The notes below the pieces were generated by a model. The model saw only the letters and a program-made list of their open reading frames with translations. It ran no database searches and was not told where the DNA came from. The translations under genes were made by a program, and so were the position numbers. From a virus, in the IMG/VR virus record IMGVR_UViG_3300034019_000557, positions 1 to 25,247 of that record: a stretch of 25,247 bases of DNA; one strand, given 5' to 3'. Position 1 is the stretch's first letter; the number at the start of each line of letters is the position of its first letter. Of the stretch, positions 1,051 to 10,154 are shown piece by piece.

Positions 1051-1656
1051 ATGAACATTACACTATCACAACCATCGAAAATGCCATGCCAAGGATGGTC
1101 AATCCCTGCTCTCGCATGTAAGACAGGCTCCAAGCTCGCACAAGTCGTTGGATCCGTTTGTCATGGCTGTTACGCTTTGTCGGGCTTTTATCGCATGCCA
1201 AACGTCCAACGTGCGCTTCAGCAACGCCTTGCAATGATGGATTCGCCCGAATGGGTGCCAGCGATGATTGCCAAGATTCGCGACACGGAGAAAAGCGGTT
1301 TCTTCCGTTGGTTCGATAGTGGGGACCTTCAGAGCATTAAGACGCTGAAAGCAATCGTCCGCATCGCTATCGCTTTGCCAGAGATACAGTTTTGGCTCCC
1401 CACAAAGGAGTACGGCATCGTCTCCGAGTACGTTGAATTGTTCGGCTCATTCCCTCCAAACCTTACCGTGCGTCTCTCCGCTTATATGGTCGACAAGGCT
1501 GGTCCCAACAGCCTAGCAGAAGGGTTGGGCGTCACCACAAGCGAAGTCTCATCAACGGCGGGTACATGTCCGGCGCCTACGCAAGGAAACAAATGCGGCG
1601 AGTGCCGGGCATGCTGGAACAAAGACATTCAGACTGTCACCTATCGCCTGCACTAA
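1051..1656 (+). CDS. GP88-family phage protein
   Basis: This 201-residue protein resembles the gene-product-88 family found in many phages (first described from mycobacteriophages), whose biochemical role is unknown to me. Family hallmarks seen: an N-terminal QPSKMPCQGWSIPA stretch, the cysteine motif CHGCYALSG at 37-45, RWFDSGDL at 86-93, a strand region around EIQFWLPTKE, and a C-terminal cluster C173, C182, C185 and C188 (KCGECRACW) with a final TYRLH. The six or more conserved cysteines suggest a zinc or iron-sulphur site; the CxxC-Tyr-Ala motif recalls radical-SAM-like proteins, though the canonical CxxxCxxC is not present. It is the only sizeable gene of the rightward cluster. The leader is A/C-rich with no SD. 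Full-length for the family as far as I can judge. Confidence 0.75.
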   Translation: MNITLSQPSKMPCQGWSIPALACKTGSKLAQVVGSVCHGCYALSGFYRMPNVQRALQQRLAMMDSPEWVPAMIAKIRDTEKSGFFRWFDSGDLQSIKTLKAIVRIAIALPEIQFWLPTKEYGIVSEYVELFGSFPPNLTVRLSAYMVDKAGPNSLAEGLGVTTSEVSSTAGTCPAPTQGNKCGECRACWNKDIQTVTYRLH

Positions 1657-2508: not shown

Positions 2509-3067
2509 GTTCGTCTTGGGCTTTCGGCGGCTTAAGGGCCGCCATGAAAGCGGCAGAGATGTCGTTATTCGTGTGCAAATGCACATGTTGGTGCAGCTGA
2601 TCCGGCACCTTGTTCTTCTCTAGGTTAGCATACTTGTCCAAGGTGATCCCCAGAGCCAGCACTGCGTCCTTGGCGGACATCTCCGGCATAAGCTCCATGA
2701 CCCGCTGCGCAGCGCCATCGATCACCGATTGTAGCTTGGCCTTCAAGTTTGTATTGAAGTACGCATTACGGAATTGCGAATCCATATCCAGCGCACTTAC
2801 CTTGATCTCATCTACACTTCGCTCGGAGATACCGAGCTGCATGGCAATGGCTCTCGAGTGTTGCCCGGTGATGAACAGATCGAGCACCTTCTTCTGTATC
2901 TCCGGTGGAATGCCCGCAAGCGCCCCTTGTCCGTTCACTTTCTCCATTACAACCCCAGGCACATGCTTCTCGATCTTCACGCCACTCAACCCGGCAAGCT
3001 GCCGTGCCCTGCTCTCGGGGGAGCGGTACACGGCGTTGCGCTTCTTGCGCTTTGGTGTCTCGCTCAT
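2483..3067 (-). CDS. HTH protein, possible terminase small subunit
   Basis: A 194-residue protein with a very basic N-terminus (SETPKRKKRNAV), a helix-turn-helix at about residues 53-90 (IPPEIQKKVLDLF, then SRAIAMQLGISERSVDEIK), and a helical C-terminal half with a segment (AKDAVLALGITLDKYANL) resembling the oligomerisation region of many phage small terminases. In that role it would recognise packaging sites and recruit the large terminase ATPase, which is not in this window. The start is MSET at 3067, using the ATGA overlap with the preceding gene. A transcriptional regulator is the main alternative, and I cannot separate the two from sequence alone. Confidence 0.5.
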   Translation of the reverse strand: MSETPKRKKRNAVYRSPESRARQLAGLSGVKIEKHVPGVVMEKVNGQGALAGIPPEIQKKVLDLFITGQHSRAIAMQLGISERSVDEIKVSALDMDSQFRNAYFNTNLKAKLQSVIDGAAQRVMELMPEMSAKDAVLALGITLDKYANLEKNKVPDQLHQHVHLHTNNDISAAFMAALKPPKAQDEHVGTIENE

Positions 3068-3924
3068 ACCCCACAAAGCCCCTCACATTCGTTTCCAAAC
3101 ATATCAAGCTGCCCAGCGTCTTCTTCAGTGGACAAGTCGACATCCTCAAGCGGGACGCACGACCTGTGCAGCCAAGGGACGCTTCTCATCTTGTCTGTTT
3201 CTGCTTTTGTGCGCTGCAATTCTTTCTCGACTCGCACGGCCTCAGTAAAAGCTTCTGGCTCGTGTTCCTTAAGTCGTCGCCACTCTTTATTTGAGTGGAA
3301 CGGGCAATACGAACATGCACTTCTTGGTGGCTCAGGAAACCCGCGCTGCTTTAACCAAGCGATACAATCGTGACGGCGCATCTCAAGCTCAACCAACGGC
3401 CACCGATGTTGCGTCCACTTGTCGCGACTTGGTTTCATGCGTTGAATCTCATCGTAACTGATGCCAATGAATTGAGTGATTTGCACCTGTTTTTCACCTC
3501 TTTTGATGCCACAAAGCCGCCTCAAATTCTTAAGAATTGGTGCAATTTTGTAATCTGCTGTGCAGGATCTGCCGAGTAAGCCAATGCTGCCATCCGGTGC
3601 CTGCATAAATGCTGGAATTGTGCTTTTAGTCCATACCCTGCCATCTTTGGCAGTCCGAAACGCCATCATGTCAGTGGTCATGTTCCCACGAGTCACTCGA
3701 TGCACCGGAAATGGAAGCTGTTTCTCAAGCCAATCAAGCCATGTGTATACAGATTTTGGCTCCGCTTGAGTGTCAGCAAAGATGGCAAAGTCCGGCATTG
3801 GCGCGATCTCTCCAACTGCTGCCATGAGCGCAAGCGTGCTGGACTGCACGCCTGCACCCAAATTAAGCACATTCCATTTAGTGGTCGGCGGTGGCTGACC
3901 GTTAAGTGAAAGCATTATACTCAC
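3064..3924 (-). CDS. PP-loop ATPase, PAPS-reductase/adenine nucleotide alpha-hydrolase type
   Basis: A 286-residue protein with an N-type PP-loop, NLGAGVQSS at 21-29, followed by FADT at 49-52, as in PAPS reductases, ATP sulphurylase-like and thiolation enzymes that adenylate their substrates. Later cysteines are notable: C121 (RSCTADYK) and the CSYC pair at 204-207 (SACSYCPFHSN), plus C256 and two near the C-terminus. One cysteine plus CxxC is reminiscent of TtcA- or DndC-like proteins that hold an iron-sulphur cluster. GTG at 3924 is preferred: GGAGGA lies 6 bases upstream and GTG overlaps the previous stop; ATG at 3915 is less well spaced. Such proteins are common in phages with uncertain roles; sulphur assimilation or nucleic-acid thiolation are both possible. 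Confidence 0.75.
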   Translation of the reverse strand: MSIMLSLNGQPPPTTKWNVLNLGAGVQSSTLALMAAVGEIAPMPDFAIFADTQAEPKSVYTWLDWLEKQLPFPVHRVTRGNMTTDMMAFRTAKDGRVWTKSTIPAFMQAPDGSIGLLGRSCTADYKIAPILKNLRRLCGIKRGEKQVQITQFIGISYDEIQRMKPSRDKWTQHRWPLVELEMRRHDCIAWLKQRGFPEPPRSACSYCPFHSNKEWRRLKEHEPEAFTEAVRVEKELQRTKAETDKMRSVPWLHRSCVPLEDVDLSTEEDAGQLDMFGNECEGLCGV

Positions 3925-5830: not shown

Positions 5831-6054
5831 CGGCGACCTCCGTTGTATTCGTACATGGCTGACACCGCAAACACGGCGCTTGAGATAAACAACGCAAGCA
5901 GCACGACTGCTTCCCACAGTTCTTGAGCGAAGTAGGCAATGGCTAGTCCATCTAGAATCGCAAGTGTCGCAAATGCCCAGAGGTAGGGCAGTGCTTTGTT
6001 TGAGTTGTCGGGTTCAAGTTTCATATATGACTGGTAGTGTTTTACTTTATTCAT
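5827..6054 (-). CDS. Two-pass membrane protein, unknown function
   Basis: A 75-residue protein with a polar N-terminus (MNKVKHYQSYMKLEPDNSNK), then two hydrophobic segments at about residues 26-42 and 48-65, and a short basic tail. ATG at 6054 overlaps the stop of the helicase C-half gene by 8 bases; an in-frame extension to 6135 would lie over that gene. It is not next to the lysis cassette, so a holin role is not suggested by position. No family is recognised. Confidence 0.55.
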   Translation of the reverse strand: MNKVKHYQSYMKLEPDNSNKALPYLWAFATLAILDGLAIAYFAQELWEAVVLLALFISSAVFAVSAMYEYNGGRR

Positions 6055-6631
6055 TGTGGAATGTTGCTGTTTTGCCATGGAAACGCAGATTTGCACTGAC
6101 GCCACACGGGCCATTTCGTTGGATGGGTATGCCAATCTCGCGAAACTCTGCGTCGTCGGACAGCTTCACAACCATCACGGCTGTGGCGTCTTGTCCGATT
6201 GCGCGGCTTTCACGAGCTTTACCCTGTTCATTTAGTTGCGTAATTGAGATGACTAAGCAACCTAATTCGATGCCAAGTAAGCGCAGACTCCGGCTGACCT
6301 CGGCCACTTCACGCTCACGGCTGCTGTCCTTGCCTAGGTCGCACCTGACAAGCTGGATGTAATCCACGAACAGCACGCCCAAGCCATCCGGCGACTTCGC
6401 CATAGCCCGTGCAGTAGCGCAGATGTTGGCGATGTCATAGAGATCGTCGCGCACCACTAGACGGCTGTTATTAAGCTTCTGGATGGCACCGTGGACGCCT
6501 CGTATGTCGCGCTCGTGCTTCGCACCTTCAGCGAGGGTGCGCAGGCTGACGCTGCCCAGCCGGGCGACAAGCCGGTCGATGATTTGGTTAGCTGGCATCT
6601 CCAAAGAGATGACGAGGATTCCTTTGTTCAT
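6047..6631 (-). CDS. dnaB: DnaB-type replicative helicase, C-terminal half (split gene)
   Basis: 194 residues covering the RecA-like ATPase core of DnaB from just after Walker A onward. Seen: H1a region ILVISLEMP (5-13), Walker B VLFVDYIQL (86-94), motif 3 SITQLN (129-134), the GQDA segment, and QRNGPCG (171-177) near the arginine finger. There is no Walker A in this protein. Walker A, with the N-terminal domain, lies in the separate gene 8921-9631. The first residues MNKGILVISLEM continue exactly where that protein stops (IANLINE) when both are laid on E. coli DnaB. The start ATG overlaps the mom-like stop as ATGA. The two products would have to associate to make a working hexameric helicase. 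GC is about 62% in a sample stretch (6301-6360). Confidence 0.9.
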   Translation of the reverse strand: MNKGILVISLEMPANQIIDRLVARLGSVSLRTLAEGAKHERDIRGVHGAIQKLNNSRLVVRDDLYDIANICATARAMAKSPDGLGVLFVDYIQLVRCDLGKDSSREREVAEVSRSLRLLGIELGCLVISITQLNEQGKARESRAIGQDATAVMVVKLSDDAEFREIGIPIQRNGPCGVSANLRFHGKTATFHNE

Positions 6632-7314
6632 AATAAGCGCATCTGCGTGTCGATTTTTGCCGATGCATCATACCGTTTGGTGTCTCCCTTTGGATATGGC
6701 TCAACGGTGTACTTCAACGCACTCCGCATTTGTTTCTTTTGTTTATTGTTGCCGCAGAAGTAAATATATCTGTGCTTTCTGGATCTTTCCTTTAAGTAAA
6801 AAGCATCTCCGTACTTTTCTCGCATCCAAGCTGCCCTATTTTCTTTGCCGCGACTTTCATCTGCAATTGTTGCTCCGTGAAGATGTTCTAGGCCTTTAAT
6901 TGCCCAATCTGTTCTTTTTGCCGAAAGGCCAGTGTATAAAAAGTTTGTGGCTTGATAAACGTAGCCAACATGTCCCTGTTCTAGATCAGCATAACTAACA
7001 ACAATCAGTGGCTTTGGCAGCATAGATAAAGATCTTCCAACTAAAATGCTTGCAAGGTTTTTCATGCTGTTGCAACAGAGCCTGTTTAGCTCAACCACAT
7101 GGCTTTCCCATACTTCCCCGCAAACTCCAGACCTTAATGATGAGCTTGCTGGAGTTCCGTAAGTGATAACACCCTGAAGTTTACTGTCTTGCCAAGCTCC
7201 AAAAGCGTAAGATATTGGACAAAGCCTTCTTGCGTAATGACGATTTAAAAGCCAAGGCTCCGCTTCAGTTGCAGAGATTTCAGTGACAACAATATCCACA
7301 TTATCGTGTTCCAT
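6628..7314 (-). CDS. mom: Mom-like DNA adenine modification protein
   Basis: A 228-residue protein resembling phage Mu Mom and relatives, GNAT-fold enzymes that convert DNA adenine to N6-carbamoylmethyl-adenine and protect phage DNA from host restriction. Seen: NRHYARR (24-30), SYAFGAW and GVITYGTPASS, VELNRLC (74-80), VSYAD (106-110) and GHVGYVYQATNF (114-125), the order and spacing I know for this family. The start at 7314 has AAGG upstream and a 14-base overlap with the previous gene; frame extends to 7362. It lies between the two helicase halves and is AT-richer (37% GC at 7021-7080) than the helicase, a sign of recent acquisition. No com-like regulator was recognised nearby. Confidence 0.8.
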   Translation of the reverse strand: MEHDNVDIVVTEISATEAEPWLLNRHYARRLCPISYAFGAWQDSKLQGVITYGTPASSSLRSGVCGEVWESHVVELNRLCCNSMKNLASILVGRSLSMLPKPLIVVSYADLEQGHVGYVYQATNFLYTGLSAKRTDWAIKGLEHLHGATIADESRGKENRAAWMREKYGDAFYLKERSRKHRYIYFCGNNKQKKQMRSALKYTVEPYPKGDTKRYDASAKIDTQMRLL

Positions 7315-7543
7315 TACCTGGCCTTGCAGACGTGTGACTATGCTGCCCCGTGTACGGCTCAAGCAGATACTTCACCTCGATAAGATCCGTCGATTGATTC
7401 TCCGGCAGAAGCATAAGCGCCTCCATCTTCGAGCCGAGTGCAGCCTTCTCGCCGATGGCGATGATGTCCTGCGTCTTCTTGGGGCGCGGCAGCTCCACGT
7501 TTTGCAGCACGTTAGTACGGCGGATGAGTACCCAGTCGCTCAT
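7301..7543 (-). CDS. Small protein, unknown function
   Basis: An 80-residue protein beginning MSDWVLIRRTNVLQNVELPR, then a region with an IIAIGEKAALGSKM segment and a C-terminus rich in Thr/Ser/Arg. The start at 7543 is well supported by AAGGAGG and an ATGA overlap with the upstream gene. The first residues MSD match those of several other genes in this array. It lies inside the segment separating the helicase halves. No family is recognised. Confidence 0.55.
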   Translation of the reverse strand: MSDWVLIRRTNVLQNVELPRPKKTQDIIAIGEKAALGSKMEALMLLPENQSTDLIEVKYLLEPYTGQHSHTSARPGNGTR

Positions 7544-7833
7544 GGTTGTGCCTCCTTCCACTTGCCTAATGTCCGCAGAAACGCCTTTGCCTTTTCTCGC
7601 GCAGTAGCATGGCAGATGTCTTGCATGAAACTGGCTAAGTGCATTAAGTAGATCCTCCACTGCTGCATGTTCAGCGTTTTCTCCGCCAGATGCATGGCGT
7701 TAAGATCATTTGCCCAATCCCACAATTCGTCGCAAGTGCAGTCAATGCCGTTGGCCGTCCACACATAGACGCCGTCTTCCTTGCGCCAGCCCATAGCGTC
7801 AGCCATGGCTACGTTAATCTCGTCGTCGCTCAT
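7540..7833 (-). CDS. Phage ABA-sandwich-like protein, copy 2
   Basis: A 97-residue paralogue of the gene at 4653-4961: MSDDEINVAMADAMGW at the front, ANDLNAMHLAEKTL in the centre and AKAFLRTLGKWKE at the end. Over the last 36 bases of homology 33 are identical in the DNA, indicating a recent duplication or gene conversion. ATG at 7833 overlaps the nuclease stop as ATGA, with GGGAGGA upstream. It matches the phage ABA sandwich layout; function unknown. It differs from copy 1 in having extra Trp and Cys (DCTCDELWDW). Confidence 0.65.
   Translation of the reverse strand: MSDDEINVAMADAMGWRKEDGVYVWTANGIDCTCDELWDWANDLNAMHLAEKTLNMQQWRIYLMHLASFMQDICHATAREKAKAFLRTLGKWKEAQP
7551..7586 (-). repeat. Imperfect repeat shared with 4664-4699
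   Basis: Second copy of the 36-base segment encoding the C-terminal end of the two paralogues, 33 of 36 bases identical. Confidence 0.8.
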
Positions 7834-8609
7834 GCTTCCTCCCATCTTCTTGGCAGCATCACGCGCATCGTTGGTGGACCGGGCCACACGTCTTGATCGA
7901 GGCACAGTTTGTACTGCGATAAAGTCACGTCCAACTGGTCATTGGCCAAATCAATCAACTCGGTTGACGCCTTCACCCACTGGCTCAAGTAAGGTGCTTG
8001 CATGTCGACGACCAAGAAGTAAAAGTCAATGTCCTCTTGGCCGGTGATCCGCTCCAGACCGTAGGTGTACCAAGCAGCTTGCTTATCGTAGCCGAAACCA
8101 AAGAACTTGTGGTCGAATTTAGACCAGTCACTGGTCGTCTTTAAATCGACAATCGCCGGACGACCCTTAATTTCAGTAATCATGTCCGGCCTGCCTTTAC
8201 ACTGAATACCGTCGCGCTCCCAGAACATGGACGCTTCGATAATCTTGTTAGCTGTGACCATCTCAAGCAACGGCTCTACAGCCGCACAGGCACCCTCTAC
8301 ACGCGCCCCTTCGTCTTCGTTGAGGATGACTTTACCAAGGTTCTCTTGGCAAAAGTTCTCCCATGTCAGCTTGCCCTCCTTGGTGCGCCGATCACACGCT
8401 GGAGCGATAGCGTATTCACAGCGGCCCTCAAGAGCGAGGCTGTGGACAAGTGTGCCAAGCTCCATCTCGCGGGAGGGCTTCCACTCTTGGCTTTCCTTCC
8501 ACTTGTAGTACGACGGACACACGGCGAATGCGTCCAGGCTGTGTTTACTCAGGCCGTGCATTGCACGGTACTTTGTCATTTCCCAATCGTAGTGTATTTC
8601 GTTTTTCAT
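7830..8609 (-). CDS. PD-(D/E)XK exonuclease, RecE/lambda-exo-like
   Basis: A 259-residue nuclease of the PD-(D/E)XK type (DUF3799/RecE-like phage nucleases). Catalytic pattern seen: H56 in GTLVHSLALE, D142 in KGRPDMI, D155-x-K157 in VDLKTT, and the Q177 motif GYDKQAAWY. These enzymes degrade one strand of double-stranded DNA ends in phage recombination, normally with an annealing partner; no Erf/RecT/Red-beta protein was recognised here. The start is ATG 8609, 4 bases after the preceding stop; the frame is open to 8747 but only through the upstream gene. C33 (AVCPSYYKW) is typical of the N-terminal helix of such proteins. The gene lies between the two helicase halves. Confidence 0.85.
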   Translation of the reverse strand: MKNEIHYDWEMTKYRAMHGLSKHSLDAFAVCPSYYKWKESQEWKPSREMELGTLVHSLALEGRCEYAIAPACDRRTKEGKLTWENFCQENLGKVILNEDEGARVEGACAAVEPLLEMVTANKIIEASMFWERDGIQCKGRPDMITEIKGRPAIVDLKTTSDWSKFDHKFFGFGYDKQAAWYTYGLERITGQEDIDFYFLVVDMQAPYLSQWVKASTELIDLANDQLDVTLSQYKLCLDQDVWPGPPTMRVMLPRRWEEA

Positions 8610-8613
8610 TTTG

Positions 8614-8928
8614 TTATGGGTTGATTTCAAGCGCACCACAGCCAACGATCCTGCCAGCTCCGTCGCGAATGAGTTTTGTTGGACTCGCCAAATCTTTCCT
8701 GTGCGGAAGTGCAGTTCGCACATAGCCCGGCACAATGTAAAGTACACCTTTAATTGGATCCGGCAGGTTGCTCACACGAGCGTCCTTGCAGCACATTATG
8801 GGGACACCGTCTATGTCGTCCACCTTAGACAAGTGTGAGTGTACTTTGACTGAGTTTCCGCTAGGCTCGACGATACCATAGCCAGTGATGACTATGTCGT
8901 GAGGGGTAAGGTTGATAAGCTTATTCAT
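8614..8928 (-). CDS. LTPH-motif phage protein, unknown function
   Basis: A 104-residue, beta-rich protein starting MNKLINLTPHDIVI, with PSGNSVKV, NLPDPIKGVLYIV and a C-terminal ASPTKLIRDGAGRIVG segment. The N-LTPH-D-I pattern followed by P-SG and a late RD-GR-IVG is one I recognise from small phage and prophage proteins without assigned function. Its ATG overlaps the stop codon of the helicase N-half (AATGAATAA), so it is the first gene of the inserted segment. Full-length. Confidence 0.7.
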   Translation of the reverse strand: MNKLINLTPHDIVITGYGIVEPSGNSVKVHSHLSKVDDIDGVPIMCCKDARVSNLPDPIKGVLYIVPGYVRTALPHRKDLASPTKLIRDGAGRIVGCGALEINP

Positions 8929-9631
8929 TTATTAAGTTTGCAATGATGTTGAGTGCCAGCATGGTTTTGCCGGACTTAGTTTCGCCACCGATGACGACAA
9001 AGTCTCCGTAGCGTATCGGGCAGATGTTGTCGATAGCGGAGTAGCCGGTTTTGATCCGCATAGATTCGTCATCGCCAGTCTCGTAGCGTGTCAGCGCATT
9101 AAGCAAGAGCGCCTTCGTATCCATGACTTTCGGTGGGGCCAGTTCACGGGACAGGCTCTCAACCTTCATCACGACATCACTTAACAGCTCCGGCGTCTGC
9201 TGCGTCTGGTCGCCGATAGCCATGAGCGTCTCGTAAGCAACATGCTGCAAGGTGCGACGCTTGGCCGTGGACTTGACTATCTCGATGAGGTCACCAATTG
9301 CTGACGCAATCGGCATGAGCGTGTAGAGCTCGCTCAGTTCGTGGAATTGCACCTGAGGCAGCGTCTCGCGTACTTTCTCAAATACGACACGGATCTCCGA
9401 GCTGGCGTTGCGGCTCTGCTGCTGCAAGATGATCTCGCATACTCGGTGACTGAGCGGATCGAAGATGTCTGACACCTTGAAGTTTTTCTCCGAGATGTGA
9501 TGCAAGAACACCTCTGGATGGTTCAGCGCAATCGACGCTATGCCACGTTCAGCCTCGCTCGCGGTTGGCACCACCGTGTCGGGTGGCAACTCTACAGGCT
9601 TACGCCTACCAGCTTTCTTGGGTGCTTCCAT
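8921..9631 (-). CDS. dnaB: DnaB-type replicative helicase, N-terminal half (split gene)
   Basis: 236 residues holding the DnaB N-terminal domain (SEAERGIASIALNHPEVF, then the FDPLSHRVCEIIL helix), the linker helix and the start of the ATPase core, with Walker A GGETKSGKT at 215-223. The protein ends 13 residues later at ALNIIANLINE, before H1a, Walker B and all later motifs. The missing part is encoded by 6047-6631, with five genes between. No intein-like sequence follows Walker A, so protein splicing is not suggested. The N-terminal KKAGRRK is basic. The start overlaps the previous gene by 26 bases. Confidence 0.9.
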   Translation of the reverse strand: MEAPKKAGRRKPVELPPDTVVPTASEAERGIASIALNHPEVFLHHISEKNFKVSDIFDPLSHRVCEIILQQQSRNASSEIRVVFEKVRETLPQVQFHELSELYTLMPIASAIGDLIEIVKSTAKRRTLQHVAYETLMAIGDQTQQTPELLSDVVMKVESLSRELAPPKVMDTKALLLNALTRYETGDDESMRIKTGYSAIDNICPIRYGDFVVIGGETKSGKTMLALNIIANLINE

Positions 9632-10154
9632 TTGATGCCATTAAAGTGTCGCGCTTAAGAAGCGTCTTGATTGGCGTACGCACCATTGACGATGCACGGG
9701 ATAGCCAACCGTTGAGGTAGCGTCCCATGCCGCGCTGGGTCTTGCGTCGCAAAGGATCGGCTTCGATCCAGGCGTGGGCTTTGAGCAACTCTACTTCGAC
9801 GGTTTTCTCGCCATAGATGATGACGAGATCCTTCATCAAGCGCGGCGGCACCTGCCAGTCTTTTCCGTCTTGAGTCTGGAATGTCATGTTGTACATGCTC
9901 ATCGTCTTACCTGACTCGGGGTCTTGGCAAAGCTCGTCCACCATTTCCTTCACGGACGTGTACCGCTTACCTGACGACTCGAGCTCTTTGTTCGTGACGA
10001 TGCACATGGCGTCAGCCAAGTCCTGTGCAGGCTGTACCGGCTCAGGCGTCACAGGTGATTCTGGCTCGCTAACGATCTGGCATGGCTCCTCGAGAGGGAC
10101 GACCAGCTCGACTTTGGTGCCGGATTTGTAGCTAATGTTAATGCTTATGTTCAT
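9606..10154 (-). CDS. Putative replication accessory protein next to helicase
   Basis: A 182-residue protein. The N-terminus is beta-like (NISINISYKSGTKVELVVPL), followed by a Pro/Glu-rich linker (28-45), a helical middle, and a C-terminal part (about 124-155: LLKAHAWIEADPLRRKT, GMGRYLNGWLSRA) typical of phage replication initiator or replisome-organiser proteins. It directly precedes the helicase N-half with a 26-base overlap, as helicase loaders and initiators often do. That assignment rests on the C-terminal motif and position only. The upstream 83-residue protein carries a similar C-terminal motif. Confidence 0.45.
   Translation of the reverse strand: MNISINISYKSGTKVELVVPLEEPCQIVSEPESPVTPEPVQPAQDLADAMCIVTNKELESSGKRYTSVKEMVDELCQDPESGKTMSMYNMTFQTQDGKDWQVPPRLMKDLVIIYGEKTVEVELLKAHAWIEADPLRRKTQRGMGRYLNGWLSRASSMVRTPIKTLLKRDTLMASNGSTQESW

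What the first reader, a model, noticed from the sequence alone, without database searches (positions are those of the whole stretch)
6047..9631. DnaB-type helicase encoded in two pieces by genes 2.3 kb apart
The N-half (8921-9631) ends at ALNIIANLINE, 13 residues after Walker A GGETKSGKT. The C-half (6047-6631) begins MNKGILVISLEM and holds every later motif (Walker B, SITQLN, QRNGPCG). Laid on E. coli DnaB the two abut in the loop between Walker A and H1a with no lost core. Both halves are intact frames. Five same-strand genes lie between: LTPH protein, PD-(D/E)XK nuclease, ABA-sandwich paralogue, unknown 80-mer, mom-like gene. No intein sequence is visible. Fractured phage helicases with split inteins are known; one without an intein, carrying modification and nuclease genes at the break, would be a two-subunit ATPase.
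Basis: partly seen in the sequence, partly recalled or inferred. Interest (0 to 1): 0.85.

Follow-up and report, generated by a model that had tools for sequence, protein, structure and literature searches.

The report
Phage helicase made from two genes
A group of uncultured phages encodes its DNA-unwinding ring helicase as two separate proteins, with the ATP-binding loop on one and the rest of the ATP-splitting site on the other, and nothing visible to join them, so the motor is most likely built from two chains.

Summary
The N-half (9631-8921, minus) and C-half (6631-6047, minus) tile a DnaB helicase with no missing residue: by structure alignment they cover E. coli DnaB 24-251 and 252-465. 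Of 78 distinct N+C pairs among the relatives fetched, 78 are split and none is fused. The nearest in-frame ATG of the C-half lies 8 residues before SLEM in 78 of 78; the N-half ends 11-37 residues after GKT, 13 in 44 of 78. In 35 virus records searched whole, only the pieces are found and no complete DnaB. No intein or intron was found at the break. Both halves are under purifying selection (dN/dS 0.05 and 0.04); the split family is one group in both trees. LTPH and exonuclease VIII-like genes lie between the halves in 78 of 78. Best reading: two chains assemble without covalent joining into a DnaB-type ring ATPase with a composite active site; assembly and activity are inferred. Spliceless split phage enzymes are known (Aeh1 NrdA, phage 25 gp43); my searches found no such DnaB helicase. 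New variant of a known kind.

The parts
8921..9631 (-). N-half of DnaB-type helicase, 236 aa: helical N-terminal domain, linker, first RecA-core strand, Walker A (GGETKSGKT) and helix A, then stop
   Evidence: phrog_19 154-377; PF03796 2-44, under cut-off; AlphaFold model residues 18-236 align to 24-251 of E. coli DnaB 6qel_B (Z 13.8, rmsd 8.7); its N-terminal domain Z 16.6, rmsd 2.1 over 148 residues with 7t22_A
6047..6631 (-). C-half of DnaB-type helicase, 194 aa: SLEM, Walker B (VDYIQL), SITQLN, ARES, QRNG motifs
   Evidence: PF03796 49-255, E 1.1e-30; phrog_19 381-580; model pLDDT 87, residues 1-194 align to 252-465 of E. coli DnaB 7t22_A, Z 19.5, rmsd 1.9 over 191 residues
8614..8928 (-). 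LTPH protein (104 aa), start overlaps the N-half stop by 8 nt
   Evidence: phrog_30542, unknown function; a member lies between the halves in 78 of 78 pairs
7830..8609 (-). DUF3799 PD-(D/E)XK, exonuclease VIII-like; start at 8609 inferred, mechanical ORF 7830-8747
   Evidence: PF12684 E 4.3e-22; phrog_412 exonuclease VIII E 8e-57; between the halves in 78 of 78 pairs
7540..7833 (-). small protein P121; start inferred, ATGA overlap with the exonuclease stop
   Evidence: no Pfam or PHROG match; variable among relatives
7301..7543 (-). 80-residue protein P119; start inferred
   Evidence: no Pfam match; the joint P119/P121-type cluster lies between the halves in 77 of 78 pairs
6628..7314 (-). Mom-like DNA modification gene; start inferred; its stop overlaps the C-half ATG (ATGA)
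   Evidence: PF25680 E 4.6e-39; phrog_1384; in 8 of 78 pairs by tblastn, 6 by clustering
9606..10154 (-). gene directly upstream of the N-half, 26-nt overlap, function unknown
   Evidence: tblastn match upstream of the N-half in most of the 78 pairs; no Pfam match

Best explanation
The two genes encode the two chains of one DnaB-type replicative helicase. The N chain carries the helical collar domain, the linker and the first strand, P-loop and helix A of the RecA-like motor. The C chain carries the rest of the motor: the glutamate of SLEM, Walker B, the QLN motif, the RES loop and the arginine of QRNG. The chains fold against each other without a covalent bond, so that the C chain's sheet is completed by the strand and helix supplied by the N chain, and six such pairs form the ring. 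ATP would be held by the P-loop of the N chain and cleaved by residues of the C chain, with the neighbouring C chain giving the arginine finger. Shown: the split, its exact place, its conservation, no other DnaB in 35 virus records, no intein or intron found at the break. Inferred: assembly, ring, ATPase and unwinding. The roles given to single residues are recalled from DnaB structures.
For: Complementary tiling with no lost residue: E. coli DnaB 24-251 and 252-465; with profiles of split rows only, 11-227 and 233-432 of 2r6a. 78 of 78 distinct pairs split, 0 fused; nearest ATG of C 8 residues before SLEM in 78 of 78, in 20 of these with a stop codon directly before it. Of 35 virus records searched whole, 33 have both pieces; of the two with one piece, G012 ends 232 bases after it and G032 ends 1,286 bases beyond it, less than the smallest gap seen (1,323). 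Purifying selection on both, median dN/dS 0.053 and 0.039. The motor fragment in the N chain is its most conserved stretch: 17 of 27 columns invariant in residues 205-231 against 33 of 209 elsewhere (counted, 17 sequences). Distances of N and C at nonsynonymous sites are correlated (0 of 999 permutations as high) more than N with the exonuclease that lies between them (bootstrap difference 0.06 to 0.45). Split rows are one side of a branch in both trees, support 100/100 and 99/97.
Against: No binding, ATPase or unwinding data, and no model of the complex could be made (one chain per prediction). The N-C correlation is not clearly above N-LTPH (interval -0.04 to 0.24), outside the window clade N-LTPH (0.65) is as high as N-C (0.62), and on synonymous distances N-exonuclease (0.63) exceeds N-C (0.55), so co-evolution is suggestive only. 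The N-half match to the DnaB N-terminal family is weak by sequence (PF00772 E 0.03), and the split-only N profile scores RecA chains (P-loop part only) slightly better than DnaB. The fold matches rest on alignments A5 and A6, which included DnaB rows from genome contigs. In the lone N chain pLDDT is 63-65 in the linker and 73-85 in the motor fragment.
Confidence: 0.85

Rival explanations
1. The halves are joined after synthesis by protein trans-splicing with a split intein, as in fractured phage genes described by Dassa et al. 2009 (recalled).
For: DnaB/gp41-type helicases are hosts of split inteins (recalled). Four of 36 records have intein matches, all under the cut-off and 7 kb or more from the helicase.
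Against: The N chain stops 11-37 residues after GKT, 13 in 44 of 78, and the nearest ATG of the C chain is 8 residues before SLEM in 78 of 78; in 20 of 78 a stop right before that ATG leaves no room at all for an intein C part, while in the other 58 the frame upstream is open and a longer start cannot be excluded by frame alone. No intein match at the break.
Confidence: 0.02
2. The gap is removed at the DNA or RNA level (programmed excision, group I/II or trans-splicing intron), giving one mRNA and one chain.
For: Programmed excision of elements inside genes is known in other systems (recalled).
Against: No Rfam match in the window at E up to 0.1. The longest word shared by the two break sites is 7-11 bases in 10 loci, within each locus's background maximum. 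No fused form among 78 pairs. The gap, 1323-3785 nt, holds genes under selection in the same direction.
Confidence: 0.03
3. The two proteins no longer work together: for instance the N chain decoys host primase or loader and the C chain acts on host DnaB.
For: The NTD could bind primase as in DnaB (recalled); a lone C model folds with high confidence.
Against: Each chain keeps residues that are useless without the other: Walker A in N; SLEM, Walker B and QRNG in C. In the 35 virus records neither occurs alone except near a record end.
Confidence: 0.08
4. Assembly artefact or frameshifted pseudogene.
For: The window is one virus record of 25,247 bases.
Against: Same break in 78 distinct pairs from many datasets; no stop inside the N frame in 78 of 78 (two, L070 and L144, begin at a record edge) and C frame complete in 70 of 78, the other 8 cut by an end of the locus or record; dN/dS 0.04-0.05.
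Confidence: 0.01

Closest known systems
DnaB replicative helicase (E. coli DnaB, B. stearothermophilus DnaB 4ESV, phage P1/P7 Ban, SPP1 G40P)
   Same: Same domains in the same order and the motor motifs; C model Z 20.4 with 4esv_C over 190 residues, N model Z 16.6 with 7t22_A over 148
   Different: Two genes and two chains; break between helix A of the P-loop and the SLEM strand; a shorter loop between QLN and RES; other genes between
Fractured phage genes with split inteins (Dassa et al. 2009; gp41-1 and gp41-8 helicases) - recalled, paper not held
   Same: DnaB/gp41-type helicase broken in two with other genes in between (recalled)
   Different: No intein found on either side; the constant genes between are an exonuclease VIII-like gene and small proteins without a named family
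Aeh1 NrdA (nrdA-a/nrdA-b) and Aeromonas phage 25 gp43A/gp43B (passages read in PMC2988022 and PMC3653736)
   Same: A phage replication enzyme split into two polypeptides that work without splicing; phage 25 gp43 parts co-purify and have polymerase activity, Aeh1 NrdA is functional (PMC2988022 passage)
   Different: Different enzymes; broken by a homing endonuclease or an untranslated spacer; here one break kept across a whole phage group
Lake Erie contig 140,939_contig_26474 in PMC10343443 (passages and section 22 read)
   Same: [quoted passage not shown] may be this arrangement, unrecognised
   Different: Sequence not seen here, so the link is a guess

Membership tests
DnaB-type replicative helicase | Helical N-terminal (primase-binding type) domain | tested here: met
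   N model to E. coli DnaB NTD, Z 16.6, rmsd 2.1, 148 residues; PF00772 only E 0.03 by sequence
DnaB-type replicative helicase | RecA-like motor with Walker A, SLEM, Walker B, QLN and QRNG motifs | tested here: met
   GKTM in N in 78 of 78; in C: SLEM 78, Walker B 75, TQLN 74, RES 74, QR[NS]G 72 of 78, where 8 of the 78 C frames are cut off
DnaB-type replicative helicase | One polypeptide | tested here: not met
   Split in 78 of 78 pairs
DnaB-type replicative helicase | Hexamer, ATPase and 5'-3' unwinding | not testable with these tools
   needs proteins; no complex prediction on hand
Fractured gene with split intein | Intein N and C parts fused to the two halves | tested here: not met
   short N tails, and in 20 of 78 no residue before the C-half ATG; no PF14890 match at the break in 36 records
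Gene split by a free-standing homing endonuclease | Homing endonuclease gene in the break | tested here: inconclusive
   no known homing endonuclease family matched in the window's break; the constant genes are LTPH, exonuclease VIII-like and P119/P121-type, of which the small ones have no named family, and the variable genes of the other loci were mostly not tested
Gene split by a free-standing homing endonuclease | Two polypeptides assemble without splicing | not tested
   inferred here; known for Aeh1 NrdA and phage 25 gp43 (PMC2988022 passage)
Intron-split gene | Group I or II intron at the break | tested here: not met
   no Rfam match in the window at E up to 0.1

The most novel reading that the evidence does not exclude
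The split is an adaptation, not a scar: the phage's ring helicase is a twelve-chain motor that is put together around DNA from collar chains and motor chains, so that it loads by assembly and needs no ring-opening loader, and the downstream place and overlapping start of the C gene set when unwinding begins.
Probability: 0.15. Interest if true: 0.92.

Novelty: new variant of a known kind. Interest (0 to 1): 0.72.

Why it matters
A RecA-fold motor whose P-loop and catalytic glutamate sit on different proteins would be a natural test of how such a fold can be cut and still work, and of how ring helicases load. The break is in the nucleotide-binding core, not at a domain border, and has been kept through a whole phage group. 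It also matters for annotation: such phages look as if they had two helicase fragments and no complete one. It is a natural split point for a two-part helicase that does not rely on an intein.

Tried and rejected
Fused relatives: none seen in the loci returned, but each kept only the best 80 (22 of 102, 26 of 106, 47 of 127, 38 of 118, 39 of 119 and 40 of 120 relatives not shown), so a distant fused cousin may be hidden there. A pattern scan for a KSGKTM-like stretch followed 19-25 codons later by LEMP gave two contigs, L334 and L335; neither has an open frame with both SGKTM and LEMP, and their best similarity to the halves is short and weak (E 4e-4 to 0.008), so they are not close fused cousins. 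In genome contigs (139 relatives, best 80 kept) the one close hit, L150, is also split; the other 79 are of at most 38% identity and have GKT and SLEM in one frame. INPHARED: C-half 493 records, all under 60% identity; N-half 11 records at E up to 0.01, all under 60%; no close isolate in that collection.

Loci with the N-half alone: 13 besides L002 (a piece of the window); at most 2,323 bases follow the N-half in them, within the range of gaps seen, so they tell nothing against the pairing.

PDB searches with A5 and A6 include DnaB rows from genome contigs and match DnaB by construction; the split-only profiles A1 and A2 are the fair test.

Counting rules: one search examined 244 sequences (243 loci and the window), kept those with both halves and the N stop inside the locus, and removed repeats; the window itself falls together with L083. 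Three of the 78 (L074, L079, L082) have their best LTPH match downstream but also an LTPH member between the halves. Searches used 58 loci picked by hand from the 78; all 58 had the six genes compared.

Literature: searches were seen as listings (61 and 62 showed 15 of 16 and 15 of 19, 72 and 84 showed 8 of 191 and 6 of 30); none of the titles or abstracts listed reports a DnaB helicase split without an intein. Passages were read in PMC10343443, PMC2988022, PMC3653736 and PMC7765530, one short section in PMC10343443. Dassa et al. 2009 is not held and is cited from memory.
Full report
WHAT IS THERE. On the minus strand, 9631-8921 encodes 236 residues that end ...GGETKSGKTMLALNIIANLINE and stop; 6631-6047 encodes 194 residues that begin MNKGILVISLEMP. 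PHROG 19, a DnaB-like helicase family, is matched at 154-377 by the first and 381-580 by the second. Pfam DnaB_C is matched at 2-44 (E 2.8e-4, under its cut-off) and 49-255 (E 1.1e-30). The N stop overlaps the start of the next gene and the C start overlaps the stop of the Mom-like gene (ATGA), read. The window is a 25,247-base virus record and no other DnaB_C match was found in it.

THE BREAK POINT. In 79 DnaB proteins of genome contigs that are in one piece, the number of residues between GKT and SLEM is 21 in 57. In the window it is 13 + 8 = 21. AlphaFold models (N: pLDDT 81, pTM 0.59; C: pLDDT 87, pTM 0.81) align to E. coli DnaB: N residues 18-236 to 24-251 of 6qel_B, C residues 1-194 to 252-465 of 7t22_A and others. 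For N the full-length alignment has a high rmsd (8.7, Z 13.8, 194 residues), presumably because the two domains sit differently; the N-terminal domain alone gives Z 16.6, rmsd 2.1 over 148 residues with 7t22_A. For C, Z 19.5, rmsd 1.9 over 191 residues with the same entry, and 20.4 with 4esv_C. The alignments behind the models included DnaB rows from genome contigs. Profiles made only of split rows also hit PDB DnaB: 2r6a 11-227 with N (E 7.6e-7; RecA chains score a little better, but over the P-loop only) and 2r6a 233-432 with C (E 1.9e-23; best Vibrio cholerae DnaB, 7.1e-27).

CONSERVATION OF THE SPLIT. Scans of IMG/VR with each half and with alignments and one of genome contigs gave 78 distinct pairs with both halves: 78 split, 0 fused, both on one strand, 1323 to 3785 nt apart. 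Identities to the window run from 48 to 100% for N and 63 to 100% for C. These come from lists capped at the best 80, so more distant relatives were not seen. No stop lies inside the N frame in 78 of 78 (L070 and L144 begin at a record edge); the C frame is complete in 70 of 78 and cut off in the other 8. The nearest in-frame ATG of the C chain lies 8 residues before SLEM in 78 of 78; in 20 of these a stop codon stands directly before it, in the other 58 the frame upstream is open for some way. The N chain ends 11 to 37 residues after GKT, 13 in 44 of 78. Of 36 records searched whole with DnaB_C, 35 are virus records: 33 have both pieces; G012 has N alone and ends 232 bases after it; G032 has C alone and ends 1,286 bases beyond it, less than the smallest gap seen; none has a complete DnaB. 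The 36th is a Pedosphaera-labelled MAG, which has a complete DnaB on another contig besides the split C-half; its N-half was not listed in that search but is on L150.

NO JOINING DEVICE FOUND. The N tails are short and 20 of 78 C chains have no residue before the ATG. The intein splicing family gives four matches under its cut-off in 36 records, 7 kb or more from the helicase. Rfam finds nothing in the window at E up to 0.1. The two break sites share no repeat beyond background in the 10 loci tested.

SELECTION AND CO-EVOLUTION. Among 36 loci of the window's clade (of 58 used) the median dN/dS is 0.053 (N) and 0.039 (C), lower than exonuclease 0.064, LTPH 0.064, the gene labelled OB 0.090 and RusA 0.138. 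N and C nonsynonymous distances correlate at 0.665 (0 of 999 permutations as high), more than N with the exonuclease that lies between them (0.39), OB (0.36) or RusA (0.44), with bootstrap intervals above zero. The difference from LTPH is not significant; on synonymous distances N-exonuclease (0.63) exceeds N-C (0.55); and among the 22 loci outside the clade N-LTPH (0.65) equals N-C (0.62). I take this as mild support only. The strongest constraint in N is on the motor fragment (17 of 27 invariant columns against 33 of 209, counted).

ORIGIN. With 29 split, 20 genome-contig and 6 named-phage sequences, split rows are one side of a branch in the C tree (100/100) and the N tree (99/97), on long stems (3.45 and 4.05 changes per column). 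One old break is the simplest reading. Long branches make the nearest relative uncertain.

SURROUNDINGS. LTPH and the exonuclease VIII-like gene are between the halves in 78 of 78 and the joint P119/P121-type cluster in 77 of 78. The rest varies: Mom in 8 of 78 by tblastn (6 loci by clustering), and in 18 of 78 a protein whose one example tested matches part of a DNA methyltransferase family (phrog_1008, E 1.2e-11). So the space before the C gene seems to hold exchangeable DNA-modification genes. A near-complete relative (G006, 43,920 bases, the same genes at both ends) has a major head protein (phrog_1328, E 5.3e-41) and no complete DnaB; its terminase and portal are my reading of the sequence, not a family match, and I did not scan it for primase or polymerase.

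MECHANISM. Most likely the two chains assemble non-covalently as one DnaB protomer. That the SLEM glutamate is catalytic, that QRNG gives the arginine finger and that RES contacts DNA is recalled knowledge of DnaB structures, not a result here. Ring formation, ATPase and unwinding are inferred.

WHAT IS KNOWN. Split phage enzymes that work without splicing are documented: passages of PMC2988022 say that the split nrdA of Aeh1 encodes a fully functional reductase and that split 43A and 43B of phage 25 co-purify and have polymerase activity; a PMC3653736 passage reports split reductase genes in 16 of 128 phage genomes. Fractured helicase genes with split inteins are recalled from Dassa et al. 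2009, not held. The listings show no DnaB helicase split without an intein. PMC10343443 reports a Lake Erie contig with 'DnaB', a hypothetical protein and 'T4 gp41 helicase' together, which may be the same arrangement unrecognised; its sequence was not seen.

VERDICT. Real, conserved and most likely functional: a new variant of a known kind (spliceless fractured phage enzyme), new, as far as my searches show, in the enzyme and in the place of the cut.

Noticed in passing
window 6628-7362; relatives L012, L016, L070, L083, L104, L122 (Mom) and 18 loci incl. L028:4465-5310: The slot just before the C-half holds exchangeable DNA-modification genes: Mom in some relatives; in 18 of 78 another protein, of which the one example tested is partly methyltransferase-like.
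   Followed up: partly
G009:C1:3281-4126, G013:C1:1828-2637, G014:C1:12275-12475, G003:C1:12910-13113: Intein splicing-domain matches under the cut-off in long frames (713-900 aa) of four relatives, away from the helicase.
   Followed up: no
window 3064-3924: Phosphoadenosine phosphosulfate reductase-like gene (phrog_424, E 2.6e-44).
   Followed up: no
window 1051-1656: Gene product 88 family protein (PF17338, E 7.2e-26).
   Followed up: no
L150 (JAFMIZ010000069.1, 13,460 bases): A split-helicase contig binned in a Pedosphaera (Verrucomicrobiota) MAG; a weak host lead, since it may be a free phage contig.
   Followed up: partly
L325 and L327 (ends of G006): The same two genes appear at both ends of the record with small differences, as in a circularly permuted genome or a join of two strains.
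   Followed up: no
L074, L079, L082 N-halves: N chains with 37 residues after GKT instead of 13, adding a tail after helix A.
   Followed up: no
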